Of a stretch of 64,000 bases of DNA, positions 42,685 to 49,393 are shown piece by piece. The notes below the pieces were generated by a model, which ran no database searches, was not told the DNA's origin, and saw only the letters and a list, made by a program, of their open reading frames with translations. Origin of the DNA: Yinghuangia seranimata (GTDB taxonomy: Bacteria > Actinomycetota > Actinomycetes > Streptomycetales > Streptomycetaceae); contig NZ_JASAOI010000037.1 of the NCBI RefSeq assembly GCF_029953285.1, forward strand, positions 124,001 to 188,000. The letters run 5' to 3'. Position 1 is the first letter of the stretch; every line of letters begins with the position of its first letter. The position numbers and the translations under genes are program-made.

Positions 42685-42881
42685 TCCCTCGCCTGGGCCG
42701 TGGCCCTGCCGTGAACAAAGCCACGGCCGCGCCGCTGCGTCGACGGGTCCGTCCGCTCGACGCCGGGTCGGCGCCGACGCGACAGCCGTGGCGCGCCGTG
42801 GGCGGCTCCTGACCGAGCGTGGGCCGGGTGACCGCCCGGCGTCGCTGACCGTTGTCGACCGGTGTGTCGCACGCGTCACCG

Positions 42882-42910
42882 TTGCGTCGGATACCCCCCA
42901 CCCGTACGGT
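42882..42910 (+). promoter_or_regulatory. Promoter of arsR-CDF operon, leaderless
   Basis: -35 TTGCGT (42882-42887) and -10 TACGGT (42905-42910) are separated by exactly 17 bp. The ATG of the regulator lies 8 bases after the -10, so transcription is expected to start at or next to the start codon. Confidence 0.72.
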
Positions 42911-42913
42911 AGG

Positions 42914-42937
42914 ACATATGAAGACCTCTTCAGATGT
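42914..42937. promoter_or_regulatory. ArsR/SmtB operator overlapping the start codon
   Basis: ACATATGAAGA (42914-42924) and TCTTCAGATGT (42927-42937) form an 11-2-11 inverted repeat with one mismatch, the geometry of ArsR/SmtB operators. The first arm contains the ATG at 42918. Confidence 0.78.
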
Positions 42938-43379
42938 GCTCGTGGGGGACGACGCCGACGCCACGTGCGGCATCCGGGTCGTCGACGCCGAGCGGGTACG
43001 TGCCGTCCGGGCCGCGCTGCCCGCCGAGTCGCACGTCGCCGACACCGCCGCCGTCTTCGCGCTCCTCGGCGACCCCGGCCGCCTCAAACTGCTGGTCGCG
43101 CTCCTCGAGGGCGAGATGTGCGTGTGCGACCTCGCCGCCGCGTGCGGGCAGGGCGAGTCCGCCGTCTCGCACCAACTGCGCCTGCTGCGCGCGCACCGCG
43201 TCGTCACCGCGCGGCGCGCCGGGCGGATGGCCTACTACCGGCTCGCCGACGCCCACGTCCGCCTGCTCCTGGACGTCACGCTCGCGCACCTCGAGCACAC
43301 CGGCCCCGAAACCGCTGTGGCACCGAGTGACCCCGCGCCCGTACCCGCTTCGGCCGTGAGCGGAGGCACCGCGCGATGA
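42918..43379 (+). CDS. ArsR/SmtB-family metal-responsive repressor
   Basis: 153 residues. Winged helix-turn-helix with LLGDPGRLKLLVALLEGEMC; CVCDLAAACGQGESAVSHQL is the recognition helix preceded by a CxC alpha3-type metal site. A second alpha5-type pattern D-x-H...H-x-x-H is also visible in LADAHVRLLLDVTLAHLEH. Carrying both sites fits sensing of Zn, Cd, Co or Pb, and the CDF exporter downstream supports metal efflux. The stop overlaps the CDF start as ATGA. The ATG at 42918 is favoured by the promoter position, although an extended frame starts earlier. Confidence 0.92.
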   Translation: MKTSSDVLVGDDADATCGIRVVDAERVRAVRAALPAESHVADTAAVFALLGDPGRLKLLVALLEGEMCVCDLAAACGQGESAVSHQLRLLRAHRVVTARRAGRMAYYRLADAHVRLLLDVTLAHLEHTGPETAVAPSDPAPVPASAVSGGTAR

Positions 43380-44524
43380 CCTCCGCCACCGCACCCGGCG
43401 CCCCCGGCGGGCACCGGCACGACGACGAGCACACCGACCACGCCGACCACGCCGACCAAGCGCACGAGCACGAGCGCGACCACGAGCACGAGCAGAACCA
43501 GGGCCGCAAGCGGGGCCACGGTCACAGCCACGACCACGGCTCGGGCGGTCACGCAGGCCACTCGCACGGCGTCAGCGCCGACGCGGACCGCCGCTACCTG
43601 ACCGCAGCCCTCGCCCTCATCGGCCTGTACATGCTGGTCGAGGTCGTCATCGGTGTCATCGCGCAGTCCCTGGCGCTGATCACCGACGCCGGCCACATGC
43701 TCACCGACGCGGTCTCCATCGTCCTCGCGCTGGTGGCGATGCGGCTCGCCGCACGCCCCGCGCGCGGCCGCTGGACGTACGGCCTCAAGCGCGCCGAGAT
43801 CCTCTCCGCACAGGTCAACGGCATCACGCTGCTCCTCCTCGTCGTCTGGTTCACGTACGAGGCGGTCCGCCGCCTGATCTCCCCGCCCGACGTCGCGGGC
43901 GGCCTGGTCGTCGTCACCGCCGTCGCCGGCATCGTGATCAACGTCGCCGCGGCCTGGCTCATCAGCCGCGCCAACCGCACCAGCCTGAACGTCGAGGGCG
44001 CCTACCAGCACATCCTCAACGACCTGTGGGCGTTCATCGCCACCGCGATCTCCGGCGTCATCGTCCTGACCACCGGCTTCGCCCGCGCCGACGCCATCGC
44101 CTCGCTCGTCGTCGCAGGCCTCATGCTCAAGGCCGGCGTCGGACTCGTCCGCGAGTCCTGGAAGATCCTCCTCGAAGCCGCCCCCGCCGGCCTCGACCCC
44201 GACCTCATCGGCGGCGAACTCGCCGCCCAGGAAGGCGTCGCCGAAGTCCACGACCTGCACATCTGGACCATCACCTCCGGCTTCCCCGCCCTGTCCGCGC
44301 ACGTCCTCGTCGACCCCGGGCACGACTGCCACGCCGTCCAGGTCACCCTGCAGCGCCTGCTGCGCGCACGCTGGGACATCGACCACACCACCCTCCAGGT
44401 CGACCACGCCCCGCCCGGCGTCTGGGAGATCGCCGACGCCCCTGGAGAAGCCGACGCGCACTGCGCCGACCCCCACGGCACCGTCCACCGGCCCACCGCG
44501 CCGCGGACCGTCCCCGAGGCTTGA
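43376..44524 (+). CDS. Cation diffusion facilitator (zinc/cobalt/cadmium exporter)
   Basis: 382 residues. A His/Asp/Glu-rich N-terminus (about 65 residues, with HDDEHTDHADHADQ and GHGHSHDHG) for metal binding, then six membrane helices with CDF motifs: LITDAGHMLTDAVSI in TM2 (HxxxD), and HILNDLWAFIATAISG in TM5 (HxxxD). The C-terminal cytoplasmic domain has VHDLHIWTITSGFPALSAHV. It exports divalent metal by proton exchange at the cytoplasmic membrane. Translationally coupled to the ArsR repressor. Confidence 0.95.
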   Translation: MTSATAPGAPGGHRHDDEHTDHADHADQAHEHERDHEHEQNQGRKRGHGHSHDHGSGGHAGHSHGVSADADRRYLTAALALIGLYMLVEVVIGVIAQSLALITDAGHMLTDAVSIVLALVAMRLAARPARGRWTYGLKRAEILSAQVNGITLLLLVVWFTYEAVRRLISPPDVAGGLVVVTAVAGIVINVAAAWLISRANRTSLNVEGAYQHILNDLWAFIATAISGVIVLTTGFARADAIASLVVAGLMLKAGVGLVRESWKILLEAAPAGLDPDLIGGELAAQEGVAEVHDLHIWTITSGFPALSAHVLVDPGHDCHAVQVTLQRLLRARWDIDHTTLQVDHAPPGVWEIADAPGEADAHCADPHGTVHRPTAPRTVPEA

Positions 44525-45568: not shown

Positions 45569-45994
45569 ATGCCCTCCACGACACCGCCGCCCCCGAGGCC
45601 TTCGAAGCCCCCGACGCCGTACACGCCGCCGACACAGCTCTGGTGGGCCCGGCCCGTTCCGGATATCCCCCTCGACCGCGGCGAACGACGCGACCCGACC
45701 GCGGATTTCGCTGTTGTGCTCGCCTGCGTCGTCGGGTTCCTGAGCAGCGGGTACCCCGTCGGCCTGCTGTTCTTCTCGATGTTGCCCCCCGACTCGTGCG
45801 AGCCGGGGTCGTGCGGAGGCGGAGTACGCCCCGAAACCGTCGTCCTCGCCCTGGGGTTCCTCGCCGAGATCGGCCTGGTCCTCGCGGCCGGCCAACTCTG
45901 GCGCCGCCGTCAGCGCGTCGCGCGGTGGGCCTGCGCGCTCGTCGCGCCGGCGATGCCGTGGCTCGCGCTGGGCGTCGTGACGGGGAAGGTGTAG
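45569..45994 (+). CDS. Small membrane protein
   Basis: 141 residues from ATG at 45569 (MPSTTPPPPRPSKPPT). Pro-rich N-terminus, helix 1 AVVLACVVGFLSSGYPVGLL, a Cys-containing loop PDSCEPGSCGGG, helix 2 VVLALGFLAEIGLVLAAGQL and helix 3 WACALVAPAMPWLALGVVTG. The function is unknown. Confidence 0.65.
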   Translation: MPSTTPPPPRPSKPPTPYTPPTQLWWARPVPDIPLDRGERRDPTADFAVVLACVVGFLSSGYPVGLLFFSMLPPDSCEPGSCGGGVRPETVVLALGFLAEIGLVLAAGQLWRRRQRVARWACALVAPAMPWLALGVVTGKV

Positions 45995-46156
45995 CCGCCG
46001 CGCCCTCGCCCGGGGGACGGCCACAGGCACCGGCCCCCGCCGCGTCACGGCGGGCGTGGGACGCTGGCGCGGACCGGGCTGAATCCTTCCGGTACCCGCG
46101 CGCCTCTCATAGGCGTGCGGACGACAGGCGTCCGCCACCGTCTCCGGGAGGACCCC

Positions 46157-46252
46157 ATGACCGCCGTCGTCATCGCCGCCGCGGCCGCCGCAGTGCTGCT
46201 GTGCGCGTGCACCCTCACCCTGCGCCGCCGCCGGAGGCGTTCGCGTGGCTGA
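46157..46252 (+). CDS. 31-residue membrane micropeptide overlapping the sigma-factor start
   Basis: ATG at 46157 is preceded by GGGAGG. The peptide starts MTAVVIAAAAAAVLLCACT, a single hydrophobic helix, and ends in a run of six arginines plus SRG. Its TGA overlaps the GTG start of the ECF sigma factor by 8 bases, so translation is coupled. It may anchor or tune the sigma-factor operon, or act only as a translational leader. Confidence 0.6.
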   Translation: MTAVVIAAAAAAVLLCACTLTLRRRRRRSRG

Positions 46253-46961
46253 CCGGCACACCTGGCCCGGCGCGACCCTCGTCAGCGCGGCGCAGCAGGG
46301 CGACGCCGACGCGATCACCGCGCTCGTGCACGGCTCGTACCCGCACGTGCGCCGGTTCGCGCACTCGCTGTGCGCCACGCCCCAGGACGCGGAGGACGCC
46401 GCCCAGGAGGCGCTGATCATCCTCTACCGCAAGATCGGGATGCTGCGGGCGTCCGGGGCGCTGGCGTCGTGGATGTTCCGGATCGTCCGGAACGAATGCC
46501 TGCGCCGGGCCCGCTCGGTGGTCCACCGGGAACAGGTCTACGGCGTCGGTGCCGACGGCGCGTTCGACGGCCCGGGCGGCCCCGGCGGGACCGGCGGGAC
46601 CGCGCGGTCGGCGGAGGAGGACGTGCTGGTGCGGCTGGACGCCGAACGCGTCGCGGCCGCCGTCGCCGCCCTGCCCGCCGACCAGCGGCAGGTGCTGATC
46701 ATGCGCGACATCCAGGGCCTTCCCGGGCGTACCGTCGCCGACCGGCTCGGGCTCAGCACCCCCGCGATGAAGTCCCGCCTGCACCGCGCGCGTTCGGCGG
46801 TACGCGAGGCCCTGCGGGAGGAACCGTGGCCGGACGGGACCGGCCCCCGCGACGGGGCACGGGCAGGCGGGGAGGCCGACCCCCGCCGCCCGCTGCGGGA
46901 CTGCCTGCACGGCGAGACGGAGACGGCGACCGCGACCGGCACTGGAGGCATCGATGCGTGA
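46245..46961 (+). CDS. ECF-type RNA polymerase sigma factor
   Basis: 238 residues. Region 2: LVHGSYPHVRRFAHSLCATP, then DAAQEALIILYRKIGML and LASWMFRIVRNECLRRAR. Region 4: VAALPADQRQVLIMRDIQGL, RTVADRLGLSTPAMKSRLHR. Between them is an unusually long Gly-rich linker (FDGPGGPGGTGGTARSAEED), and the C-terminus has an extra 50 residues containing a single Cys. GTG at 46245 overlaps the micropeptide stop. The next gene, a membrane protein, overlaps its end by 8 bases and may be its regulator. Confidence 0.92.
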   Translation: MADRHTWPGATLVSAAQQGDADAITALVHGSYPHVRRFAHSLCATPQDAEDAAQEALIILYRKIGMLRASGALASWMFRIVRNECLRRARSVVHREQVYGVGADGAFDGPGGPGGTGGTARSAEEDVLVRLDAERVAAAVAALPADQRQVLIMRDIQGLPGRTVADRLGLSTPAMKSRLHRARSAVREALREEPWPDGTGPRDGARAGGEADPRRPLRDCLHGETETATATGTGGIDA

Positions 46962-47478
46962 AATCACACTGGACAGCCCGGCCGCGGTGTCCGCCGCGGC
47001 CCACGACCCCGGCGGGACCGGTGCCGGGACGGCCCGTGGGCCCGCCCCCGACGCGGGGCCCGCGAAGGCGGGCATGCGCGAGCGCGTGCAGGAGCTCCCG
47101 GTCAAGGCCCGTACCGTCGCCGCCGTCGAGGGCGTGGTCGGGGCCGGGGCCGAAGGCCGCGAGGCCGTCACCGGGTCCGCGGACCCCACGTCGGCCGCCG
47201 TGCCGGCCGAACGCACACCCGCGCGCGGCGGGTTCGCGAGCGCGTCCGTCCCGCGTCACCTCGCCCGGGGCGCGGTCGGGTTCGGGGCGTTGGTCGCGTC
47301 GCTCGCCCTGCTGCCCGTCGTCGGGGTCGTGAGCCTGCTGCTCGCCCCCGTCGGGCTGGTCGCGCTGCGCGGCTGCCCGATGTGCTGGGCGATCGGCCTC
47401 GTCGAGACGATCTCGGCCGGCCGGCTGCGGCGCAGCTGCGAGAACGGGACGTGCGAACTGAAGCGCGCCACACGGTAG
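46954..47478 (+). CDS. Cysteine-containing membrane protein coupled to ECF sigma factor
   Basis: 174 residues. A long Ala/Gly/Pro-rich N-terminus, one or two membrane helices (AVGFGALVASLALLPVVGVV; SLLLAPVGLVAL) and a short C-terminal tail with GCPMCWAIGL and CENGTCELKR. A CPxC motif next to a membrane helix and a later CxxxxC pair suggest redox or zinc sensing. The overlap with the sigma-factor gene suggests an anti-sigma-like role, but no classic zinc-anti-sigma HxxxCxxC motif is present. Confidence 0.7.
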   Translation: MREITLDSPAAVSAAAHDPGGTGAGTARGPAPDAGPAKAGMRERVQELPVKARTVAAVEGVVGAGAEGREAVTGSADPTSAAVPAERTPARGGFASASVPRHLARGAVGFGALVASLALLPVVGVVSLLLAPVGLVALRGCPMCWAIGLVETISAGRLRRSCENGTCELKRATR

Positions 47479-47569: not shown

Positions 47570-48193
47570 CTATCCGTCCGCGCGCGCCATCGTGACGAGT
47601 TCGAACTCCTCGATGCTCAGCAGCGTGACGTTCGCCTTCTTGAGCCCCTCGCCGCGCACCGCCGCCTGCGGCCCCCGGGACGCGATCATCGAGGCCTTGT
47701 CGCGGAACAGCGTGCCGACCATGCCCCGGCCCGCCGACCCGTTCATGAACAGCGTCGCGCCGACCAGCCCGTCGATGGCCTCCAGGCCGGGACGGCCCAT
47801 CTCGTTGAACGTCGAGACGTACAGTGCGGCGTCCGACGGGGCGAACTCCACCCGCCCGGTGCGCAGCCATCCGCCGGGCCCGACCTGCGGCTGCGGGGTG
47901 AACGAGACGGCCTCCCACGCCTCCGTGGTCACCGTCGTGGCGAACGGCTGGAGCAGCTCCATCCGGCGCTCCCGCAGCATCTTGTCGCTCTCCGCGCGGG
48001 CGCTCTCGCTCTCCCACCACGAACCCATCAGCAGCTTGCCGACCTCGCGGTCCGCGAACAGCCCGAAGCGGCGGAAGCCGGCCTGGGCACGCAGCAGGTC
48101 CGGCGCCTCGCGCGAGAGTGCGTCGAGCGCCGCGCCGAGCTGCGCCGGGTCGCCGGTCACGTAGGTGGTGCGCACGTACATGGGTTCCTGCAT
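47570..48193 (-). CDS. ABM-like dimeric alpha/beta-barrel protein, paralogue 1
   Basis: 207 residues. Two tandem antibiotic-biosynthesis-monooxygenase-like halves: one with VRTTYVTGDPAQLGAALDAL...LLRAQAGFRRFGLFADREVG and SWWESESARAESDKML, the other with FNEMGRPGLEAIDGLVGATL and FRDKASMIAS. The ferredoxin-like fold normally binds small aromatic or heme ligands. ATG at 48193 follows GAAGGACG. It is a close paralogue, same length, of the gene immediately upstream. Confidence 0.85.
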   Translation of the reverse strand: MQEPMYVRTTYVTGDPAQLGAALDALSREAPDLLRAQAGFRRFGLFADREVGKLLMGSWWESESARAESDKMLRERRMELLQPFATTVTTEAWEAVSFTPQPQVGPGGWLRTGRVEFAPSDAALYVSTFNEMGRPGLEAIDGLVGATLFMNGSAGRGMVGTLFRDKASMIASRGPQAAVRGEGLKKANVTLLSIEEFELVTMARADG

Positions 48194-48401
48194 GGCTCGT
48201 CCTTCTGTCGGGCCGGCGCGGCGTAGCGCCGGCTGCCTTCCCATGTGACGCCCGCGCGCGGTGAGCGGCAACGCAGGTGGCCCATGCGGGTGAGCCCGTC
48301 CCGCCCGACGGCGGCGTGGTCTCTGGGAGCGGGCGGAGCGCGCCGCGGGGCGGGGCCGCGAGCTCGGCCCCGCCCCGCGGCGGACGGGGGACGGGGGACG
48401 G

Positions 48402-49025
48402 TCAGGCTTCCTGCATGTCCATCGCCACGATCTCGTACTCCTCCAGCCCGATCAGCGAGGCCTGCATGCGCTGGAAGCCGTCGCCGCGGACCGCCGCCTG
48501 CGGGCCCCGGGCGGAGGCCAGGGCGTCCTGGTCGCGGAAGATCGTGCTGATCATCGCGCGGCCGGCCTTCGCGTTCATGAGCAGGGTCGCGGCGACGAGG
48601 CCGTCGATGGCCTCCAGTCCCGGGCGGCCCGCGTCGACGAAGGTCCGGGCGAACGTCCCGGCGTCCTTGGGGGCGAACTCGACGCGCCCCATGCGCGCGC
48701 CCGCGTCGGGCCCGAACCGCGGCGCGTCGGTGTACGAGACGACCTGCCACGCCTCGGTGGTGACCGTGGTGGCGAACGGCTGCAGCAGCTCCGTGCGGCG
48801 GTCCCGCAGGGCGGCGTCGCTCGCGTCGCGGGCGCTCTCGCTCTCCCACCACGAGCCCATCATGATCTTGCCGACCTCGCGGTCCGCGAACAGCCCGAAG
48901 CGCTGGTAGCCGGGCTGGCCGCGCAGCAGGCCCGGGGCGTCGCGGGTGATCGCGTCGAGCGCGGTGCCGATCCGGGCGGGGTCGCCGGTCGCGTAGGTGG
49001 TGCGCACGTACATGGGGTCCTGCAT
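48402..49025 (-). CDS. ABM-like dimeric alpha/beta-barrel protein, paralogue 2
   Basis: 207 residues, roughly 65 percent identical to the neighbouring paralogue by eye. Shared blocks include MYVRTTY, RFGLFADREVGK, GSWWESESAR and LLQPFATTVTTEAW, LEAIDGLV and ARGPQAAVRG. ATG at 49025 follows GGAAGG. The pair is a tandem duplication on one strand, separated by about 208 bases, so each probably has its own promoter. Confidence 0.85.
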   Translation of the reverse strand: MQDPMYVRTTYATGDPARIGTALDAITRDAPGLLRGQPGYQRFGLFADREVGKIMMGSWWESESARDASDAALRDRRTELLQPFATTVTTEAWQVVSYTDAPRFGPDAGARMGRVEFAPKDAGTFARTFVDAGRPGLEAIDGLVAATLLMNAKAGRAMISTIFRDQDALASARGPQAAVRGDGFQRMQASLIGLEEYEIVAMDMQEA

Positions 49026-49393
49026 GGTGGTTCCTTCCTGGGCGGTGCGGCGGCGTCCCGCCGGCTGCCTCCCATCCGAAGCCACCCGGGGGGAACCGGC
49101 AAACGCCGCTGGGCCGTTCGGGCGCCGCCGCGCCGCCGCGCCGCTCGGCCGAACCGTCCGACCTGTCGCTGCTCGGCCTGGTGCGCCACAGGGCCCGGAT
49201 CGAGCAGAACTGGTTCCGACGCGTCATGGCCGGACGGGACGTGACACCGCACTACCGCACCGCCGACGACCGCGACGCGGACCCGCTACGCGGACCCGCT
49301 ACGCGACCGGACCGACGGGCGGATCAGGCAGTAGCGCGGAACCCGGCGGCCATCGATCAGGAGCAGGTTCCCAAGCAGGTTCCCAAGCAGGGT
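49026..49393. other. Intergenic stretch with short tandem repeats
   Basis: About 370 bases without a supported gene. It contains a 13-bp direct repeat (CGCGGACCCGCTA twice, near 49275-49300) and a 12-bp direct repeat (CAGGTTCCCAAG twice, near 49364-49388). Confidence 0.5.

What the first reader, a model, noticed from the sequence alone, without database searches (positions are those of the whole stretch)
46157..47478. ECF sigma operon with a 31-residue membrane peptide and a CPxC membrane protein
A micropeptide with its own ribosome site overlaps the sigma-factor start, and the sigma stop overlaps a membrane protein with GCPMC and CENGTC motifs. Classic anti-sigma zinc motifs are missing. The sigma factor also has a Gly-rich insertion between regions 2 and 4. 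This is an unusual, compact, translationally coupled three-gene unit.
Basis: partly seen in the sequence, partly recalled or inferred. Interest (0 to 1): 0.5.

Follow-up and report, generated by a model that had tools for sequence, protein, structure and literature searches.

The report
Self-regulating sigma-factor operon with micropeptide
A three-gene switch shared by many soil actinobacteria makes a sigma factor, a 31-residue membrane peptide and a cysteine-bearing membrane protein; it seems to control little besides itself, and the tiny peptide comes and goes together with the membrane protein.

Summary
Three overlapping genes encode a 31-aa membrane micropeptide (46157-46252), an ECF sigma factor (46245-46961) and a CPxCW membrane protein (46954-47478). 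The unit is conserved: of 108 distinct sigma factors of this family found here, 95 carry the micropeptide and 13 do not. The 95 have the CPxCW gene next (broken in 2); none of the 13 does, and 9 of the 13 have an AhpC/TSA-like redoxin there. The CPxCW protein matches no Pfam family or PDB fold, and occurs without the sigma factor in one actinobacterial family.

Best explanation: a self-amplifying ECF module whose only detected target is its own operon. Micropeptide and CPxCW protein act together at the inner face of the membrane as a thiol or metal sensor that holds the sigma factor back. The promoter link and gene pairing are well supported; the inhibition step and the signal are inferred. 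The Gly-rich insertion is just a variable linker. I rate it a new variant of a known kind.

The parts
46080..46110 (+). predicted autoregulatory ECF promoter: TGAATCCT -35, 16-nt spacer, CTCTCAT -10
   Evidence: only match in the own genome, also at 2 mismatches; same motif before the operon in relatives
46117..46135 (+). hairpin / inverted repeat GCGGAC-N7-GTCCGC at the predicted 5' end of the mRNA
   Evidence: core 92.0% paired in 29 members (window included), 27 cells with both sides changed; slid controls 30-50% for the whole stem against 82.4%
46146..46152 (+). Shine-Dalgarno of the micropeptide (GGGAGGA)
   Evidence: similar sites in relatives
46157..46252 (+). micropeptide, 31 aa, one predicted membrane helix (res. 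4-22), Arg-rich tail, invariant Cys18
46245..46961 (+). ECF sigma factor, 238 aa, regions 2 and 4, invariant Cys43 and Cys85
46954..47478 (+). CPxCW membrane protein, 174 aa; variable N-terminus
47239..47463 (+). conserved core of the CPxCW protein: hydrophobic hairpin, GCPMCW and C-x4-C
   Evidence: 16 invariant columns in 41 members incl. four Cys; AlphaFold helices 4-23, 25-42, 47-58 of the core, best model pLDDT 77.5, the other four 61-65

Best explanation
A self-contained, positively autoregulated ECF module. The sigma factor transcribes its own operon from one dedicated promoter (supported by position and co-occurrence, not measured), and that operon is its only detected target (supported). 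It produces a cationic one-helix micropeptide and a two-helix CPxCW membrane protein. By the positive-inside rule their invariant cysteines face the cytoplasm, and almost nothing protrudes outside, so the signal is probably read at the inner face of the membrane: thiol oxidation, a thiol-reactive compound or a soft metal (inferred). In the resting state the pair holds the sigma factor at the membrane; modification of the cysteines frees it, the operon is amplified, and the newly made pair both acts on the stress and re-captures the sigma factor (inferred). The micropeptide is the piece that joins the membrane protein to the sigma factor, because in the loci examined it is found only where both are present.
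For: Promoter: own genome 1 site at 0-2 mismatches. Of 61 genomes the perfect motif is in 10 of 13 sigma-bearing ones and 1 of 48 others; that one, G051, holds a decayed remnant of the same operon. Looser patterns find scattered extra sites of differing sequence. Micropeptide and CPxCW gene: 95 of 95 together (third gene broken in 2), 0 of 13 without. No micropeptide found in the 8 orphan CPxCW loci by pattern or by profile, best E 0.11. Redoxin (AhpC-TSA E 6e-22 and 6e-18 in the two scanned) fills the slot in 9 sigmas, pointing to thiol chemistry. Sigma Cys43 in 106 of 106 aligned distinct members, 0 of 16 aligned paralogues.
Against: No interaction or activity data. Sigma factors of the family in at least three lineages do without the pair, so it cannot be the only way to control this family. 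Orphan CPxCW genes in one family (8 genomes, no sigma match at E<=1e-30) show that this domain has a use of its own. No known anti-sigma domain in the operon. Few independent losses: treekit's paired test has 2-4 pairs, p 0.5, and the two traits were entered as identical because every row agrees. A strict pattern can miss weaker targets; at 2 mismatches the reversed control pattern also hits, once in the own genome. dN/dS of the micropeptide in the window's clade is near 1.
Confidence: 0.42

Rival explanations
1. The CPxCW protein is the output, not the inhibitor: a membrane thiol/metal protein doing the same job as the redoxin that replaces it elsewhere, with the micropeptide as its accessory subunit. 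The sigma factor has no anti-sigma factor and senses by itself (for example through Cys43/Cys85) or is controlled by its level.
For: Redoxin replaces the pair in 9 sigmas, with the promoter readable in 8 of the 9; orphan CPxCW genes without sigma; Cys43 present in every subtype of the family; no anti-sigma domain found.
Against: No micropeptide was found beside the orphan CPxCW genes, which an obligatory accessory subunit should not lack; an unrestrained, positively autoregulated sigma factor would be expected to run away.
Confidence: 0.33
2. The small frame is only a translation device: ribosomes ending it restart on the sigma gene, and the peptide itself does nothing.
For: 8-nt overlap of stop and start here; the C-terminal RG is dictated by the sigma GTG inside CGTGGCTGA; dN/dS near 1 in the window's clade.
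Against: Invariant Cys with both Cys codons in use, constant helix and Arg tail, dN/dS 0.23-0.36 in the other type, where 43 of 46 frames do not overlap, and loss together with CPxCW rather than with sigma.
Confidence: 0.1
3. The peptide is a nascent-chain sensor (arrest or insertion monitor) that tunes sigma translation when membrane insertion fails.
For: Hydrophobic nascent peptide directly upstream and overlapping; such leaders exist (abstract start of PMC12992588 in the listing).
Against: No conserved arrest-like C-terminus; the tail varies between lineages and so does the gap to sigma.
Confidence: 0.07
4. The CPxCW protein is simply a YgaP-like (PF11127) membrane domain.
For: Similar plan by eye: Arg-Gly start, two helices, Cys-Pro near the end, and two actinobacterial PF11127 members end in two further Cys (L184, L187).
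Against: PF11127 is not among the 9 families that any of 41 members hit at E<=1; hhalign probability 5.7%; no PDB fold match, though with a model of middling confidence.
Confidence: 0.06

Closest known systems
Sigma-R / RsrA of actinobacteria (seen: abstract start of PMC4960319 in the listing)
   Same: ECF-type sigma factor in actinobacteria with cytoplasmic cysteines as switch
   Different: RsrA is a zinc-binding anti-sigma (its HxxxCxxC motif is recalled); here no such motif, two membrane proteins, and no detected regulon beyond the operon
Sigma-M with YhdL-YhdK of Bacillus subtilis (abstract start of PMC6827917 in the listing)
   Same: two partners together restrain one ECF sigma factor, as proposed here
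   Different: no sequence relation seen or tested; [quoted passage not shown]
Sigma-Y operon of Bacillus subtilis (recalled; the search listed no paper devoted to it)
   Same: ECF sigma with small membrane proteins in one operon and a regulon little larger than itself (recalled)
   Different: firmicute; no CPxCW protein or Cys micropeptide recalled; not compared by sequence
CorE-type ECF238 sigma factors (passages of PMC8999054)
   Same: cysteines in the sigma factor itself
   Different: CorE carries a Cys-rich C-terminal domain and a CxC in the linker; here single conserved Cys in region 2
YgaP-like TM domain PF11127
   Same: two-helix plan with Cys-Pro
   Different: no homology by Pfam or hhalign

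Membership tests
ECF sigma factors | only sigma regions 2 and 4 over a short linker | tested here: met
   PF04542 5.5e-14, PF08281 3e-14; linker 34-58 aa in 65 measurable members, 51 here
ECF sigma factors | positive autoregulation from an upstream ECF promoter | tested here: inconclusive
   conserved, sigma-linked promoter motif; transcription not measured
Canonical ECF promoters | -35 AAC and -10 CGT (passage of PMC8103513) | tested here: not met
   GAATCC ... TCYYRN by strict pattern before 75 of 80 operons, the other 5 with a variant -10
Zinc anti-sigma (ZAS) | HxxxCxxC motif | tested here: not met
   no His four before the CxxC; no Pfam or NCBIfam hit over cut-off for the third protein
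Membrane anti-sigma factors, functional | binds and inhibits its sigma factor | not testable with these tools
   needs two-hybrid or deletion
YgaP-like TM (PF11127) | profile match over the curated cut-off | tested here: not met
   none among 41 members; hhalign 5.7%
A numbered ECF group of the 2021 classification | match to the group model | not tested
   models and paper not held; groups named in the passages read of PMC8999054 do not describe this neighbourhood

The most novel reading that the evidence does not exclude
A new kind of minimal ECF module: a sigma factor with a regulon of one operon, restrained by a two-part anti-sigma unit in which a 30-residue cationic membrane peptide is the dedicated linker to a new family of CPxCW membrane thiol/metal sensors, with no extracytoplasmic sensor at all and a further cysteine site in the sigma factor itself.
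Probability: 0.25. Interest if true: 0.75.

Novelty: new variant of a known kind. Interest (0 to 1): 0.55.

Why it matters
Genes this small are easily skipped by annotation, yet this one is kept in 95 of 108 sigma relatives and tracks one partner without an exception seen. If it is part of the anti-sigma unit it would be a very small one, and the single-promoter regulon makes the module easy to test and to reuse as an orthogonal switch. It also gives a function lead for an unnamed membrane family and for the redoxin that replaces it.

Tried and rejected
DUF2892/YgaP idea for the third protein: Pfam, hhalign with a recalled consensus and with 15 of 16 genomic PF11127 matches, one dropped for a stop: not supported. 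Fold search in PDB: 24 matches, none at E<=0.001. Rfam in 45900-46400: no hit up to E 1. Conserved neighbours outside the operon: none general; a polyketide synthase gene follows in 16 of 80 loci, these all Streptomyces, one of them scanned by Pfam. Regulon by looser patterns: one extra site in the own genome, 0-2 extra per genome in nine sigma-bearing genomes, of differing sequence; the genes behind them were not compared. Four related Nocardia share one weak site 2.6-2.7 kb downstream. Gly-rich insertion: variable linker. dN/dS without alignment mixed lengths; one search replaces it. In the tree rows L081 and L095 were mis-extracted (24-27% filled, very long branches); their labels rest, and L095 falls between the two hydrolase rows. 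In one search the promoter row of L103 took a GAATCC 7 nt before the start codon, so 1 of 90 rows in that table is misplaced. The profile missed L005, whose peptide is plain. Hairpin control: shuffled sequences reach the observed median stem score in 6.0%. Literature: (listings), passages of PMC8103513 and PMC8999054; no description of this operon seen, but the 2021 ECF classification is not held.

Full report
What is there. The window lies in a 9.8-Mb actinobacterial genome, 98% complete in 113 contigs. At 46157-47478 three genes overlap by 8 nt each: a 31-residue peptide with its own GGGAGGA site, an ECF sigma factor starting with GTG, and a 174-residue protein with a hydrophobic hairpin and four cysteines. 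The next gene downstream with a Pfam domain runs the other way (47570-48271, minus strand), so the operon is most simply just these three genes.

Conservation. Within 61 relatives, 13 genomes including its own carry an orthologous sigma factor (over 200 bits; the next best match is 80 bits). A scan of genome contigs gave 80 named loci, the limit of one call, so the spread is a lower bound. Of 90 distinct loci from both, 87 have the peptide. A class-wide sample of 394 genomes gave 23 with the sigma factor. Together, without duplicates, there are 108 distinct family sigmas, the window's included: 95 with peptide, 13 without.

The peptide. Alignment of 87 peptides shows one invariant residue, Cys18, then Leu in 85 and Arg in 84 at two more columns. 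Two forms exist: CxC (41 peptides, as here) and GxC or SxC (46). Measured to the sigma start implied by the match, 39 of 41 of the first form overlap it, against 3 of 46 of the second, of which 41 end 25-60 nt before it. dN/dS is 0.23-0.36 for close pairs of the second form, 0.49-0.57 for the first, and 0.97 for the window's own 11-member clade against 0.33 for its sigma gene. So constraint on the peptide is clear overall and weak in the nearest relatives, partly because one hydrophobic residue replaces another.

Peptide and membrane protein go together. The 95 peptide-bearing sigmas have the CPxCW gene next; it is broken in L046 and L063, and in both the peptide is kept. None of the 13 peptide-less sigmas has it: 9 are followed by a protein with an SCPxC motif that is AhpC-TSA/redoxin (two of the nine scanned; the others by eye), 2 by an alpha/beta hydrolase (one scanned), and 2 by nothing recognised. 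On the sigma tree (quick method) the redoxin type needs one change (SH-aLRT 98), the type with nothing one (100), and the hydrolase type two, because the mis-extracted row L095 falls with it. Treekit's test on independent pairs has only 2-4 pairs and cannot be significant, and the two traits are identical by row, so the association rests on about three joint losses without an exception. The CPxCW domain also occurs in 8 genomes of one family that have no such sigma match, and no peptide was found beside it by pattern or by profile (best E 0.11). Hence, in what I examined, the peptide is found only where both sigma and CPxCW are present. This is the main reason for seeing it as the link between them.

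The membrane protein. In 41 members (window included) 16 columns are invariant, among them the four cysteines, GCPxCW without its x, and the His and Arg-Gly at the start. No Pfam family fits, YgaP-like domains do not align, and AlphaFold gives three helices with pLDDT 77.5 in the best model and 61-65 in the other four, with no PDB match; a negative from such a model is weak. Arg at both ends and an uncharged turn put both ends, and the cysteines, inside the cell by the positive-inside rule; the peptide's Arg tail does the same. This topology is inferred.

Promoter. TGAATCCT-N16-CTCTYAT lies before the operon. In the own genome it is the only site up to two mismatches; a looser pattern adds one. 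Among 61 genomes the perfect motif occurs in 11, once each: 10 of the 13 with the sigma gene, and G051 (81% complete), where no sigma ortholog was found and a frameshifted remnant of the peptide stands behind the promoter. The other three sigma-bearing genomes have the site with 1-2 mismatches. At two mismatches extra sites are scattered and the reversed control pattern also hits, so these look like chance. Redoxin-type operons show the promoter in 8 of 9. Fisher p for motif against sigma is 3e-8, ignoring kinship. A looser pattern in nine sigma-bearing genomes finds 0-2 extra sites each, of differing sequence. The simplest reading is that the sigma factor reads this promoter and little else; weak or divergent targets are not excluded.

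Hairpin. Just behind the -10 box, where the mRNA should start, lies an inverted repeat (46117-46135 here). In 29 members that I chose from the 86 listed, the 6-pair core is 92.0% paired, with 27 compensatory cells; sliding the partner drops pairing of the whole stem from 82.4% to 30-50%. Dealing the 3' letters anew gives 72% paired, 0 of 500 reaching the observed. A plainer test on the 86 gives a mean stem score of 6.67 against 4.10 in shuffles, with 6% of shuffles reaching the median. In 8 of the 9 redoxin-type loci that I looked at the best stem is no better than in shuffles; of the two hydrolase loci one, L073, keeps a short stem by the script. A covarying RNA stem, for example a 5' stabiliser, fits; a slowly changing operator for a dimer would look similar.

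Sigma cysteines. Cys43 (region 2.1) and Cys85 (region 2.4) are present in 109 of the 112 loci searched, 105 of them distinct; my pattern missed L037, L215 and L216, and the latter two show both by eye. In the alignment of distinct sequences both are present in 106 of 108, the other two being gapped. In 17 paralogues Cys85 is common (13), whereas Cys43 is absent in the 16 that align. Cys43 is thus a family mark in every subtype, and a possible switch in the sigma factor itself. Region names are recalled, not computed.

Mechanism. Shown by sequence: operon structure, pairing, promoter link. Inferred: that the sigma factor uses this promoter, that peptide and CPxCW protein restrain it, and that a thiol or metal signal frees it. 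The chief rival is that the CPxCW protein is the product needed under stress, like the redoxin elsewhere, and that the sigma factor senses by itself. Present data do not decide between them, so I give 0.42 and 0.33.

Known or new. ECF sigma operons with membrane partners are a known kind; this arrangement is not among those in the review passages I read or in the listings of ten library searches, but the 2021 group catalogue was not available, so the sigma factor itself may already carry a group number. I rate it a new variant of a known kind.

Noticed in passing
46117-46135: Covarying hairpin or inverted repeat at the predicted mRNA start of the operon; no comparable stem in 8 of 9 redoxin-type operons examined.
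   Followed up: partly
L206, L207, L208, L209, L211-L214, L082: Second operon type: the same sigma family followed by an AhpC/TSA-like redoxin, no micropeptide; same promoter readable in 8 of 9.
   Followed up: yes
L171-L178: CPxCW membrane genes without the sigma factor in one actinobacterial family (code f28), with varied neighbours.
   Followed up: partly
L114 (genome G051): Decayed copy of the operon: promoter and frameshifted peptide remnant left, no sigma ortholog found.
   Followed up: partly
42852-44524: ArsR-family regulator (PF01022) and a CDF metal efflux protein (PF01545) overlapping, about 1.6 kb upstream of the operon; possible metal-resistance pair.
   Followed up: no
47570-49085 (minus strand): Two tandem genes with an antibiotic-biosynthesis-monooxygenase (ABM) domain just downstream.
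   Followed up: no
16 loci between L043 and L108 (list): In 16 Streptomyces loci a polyketide-synthase-like gene follows the operon on the same strand; one scanned by Pfam.
   Followed up: partly
L179 (genome G402): Second, truncated CPxCW copy about 5 kb from the operon.
   Followed up: no
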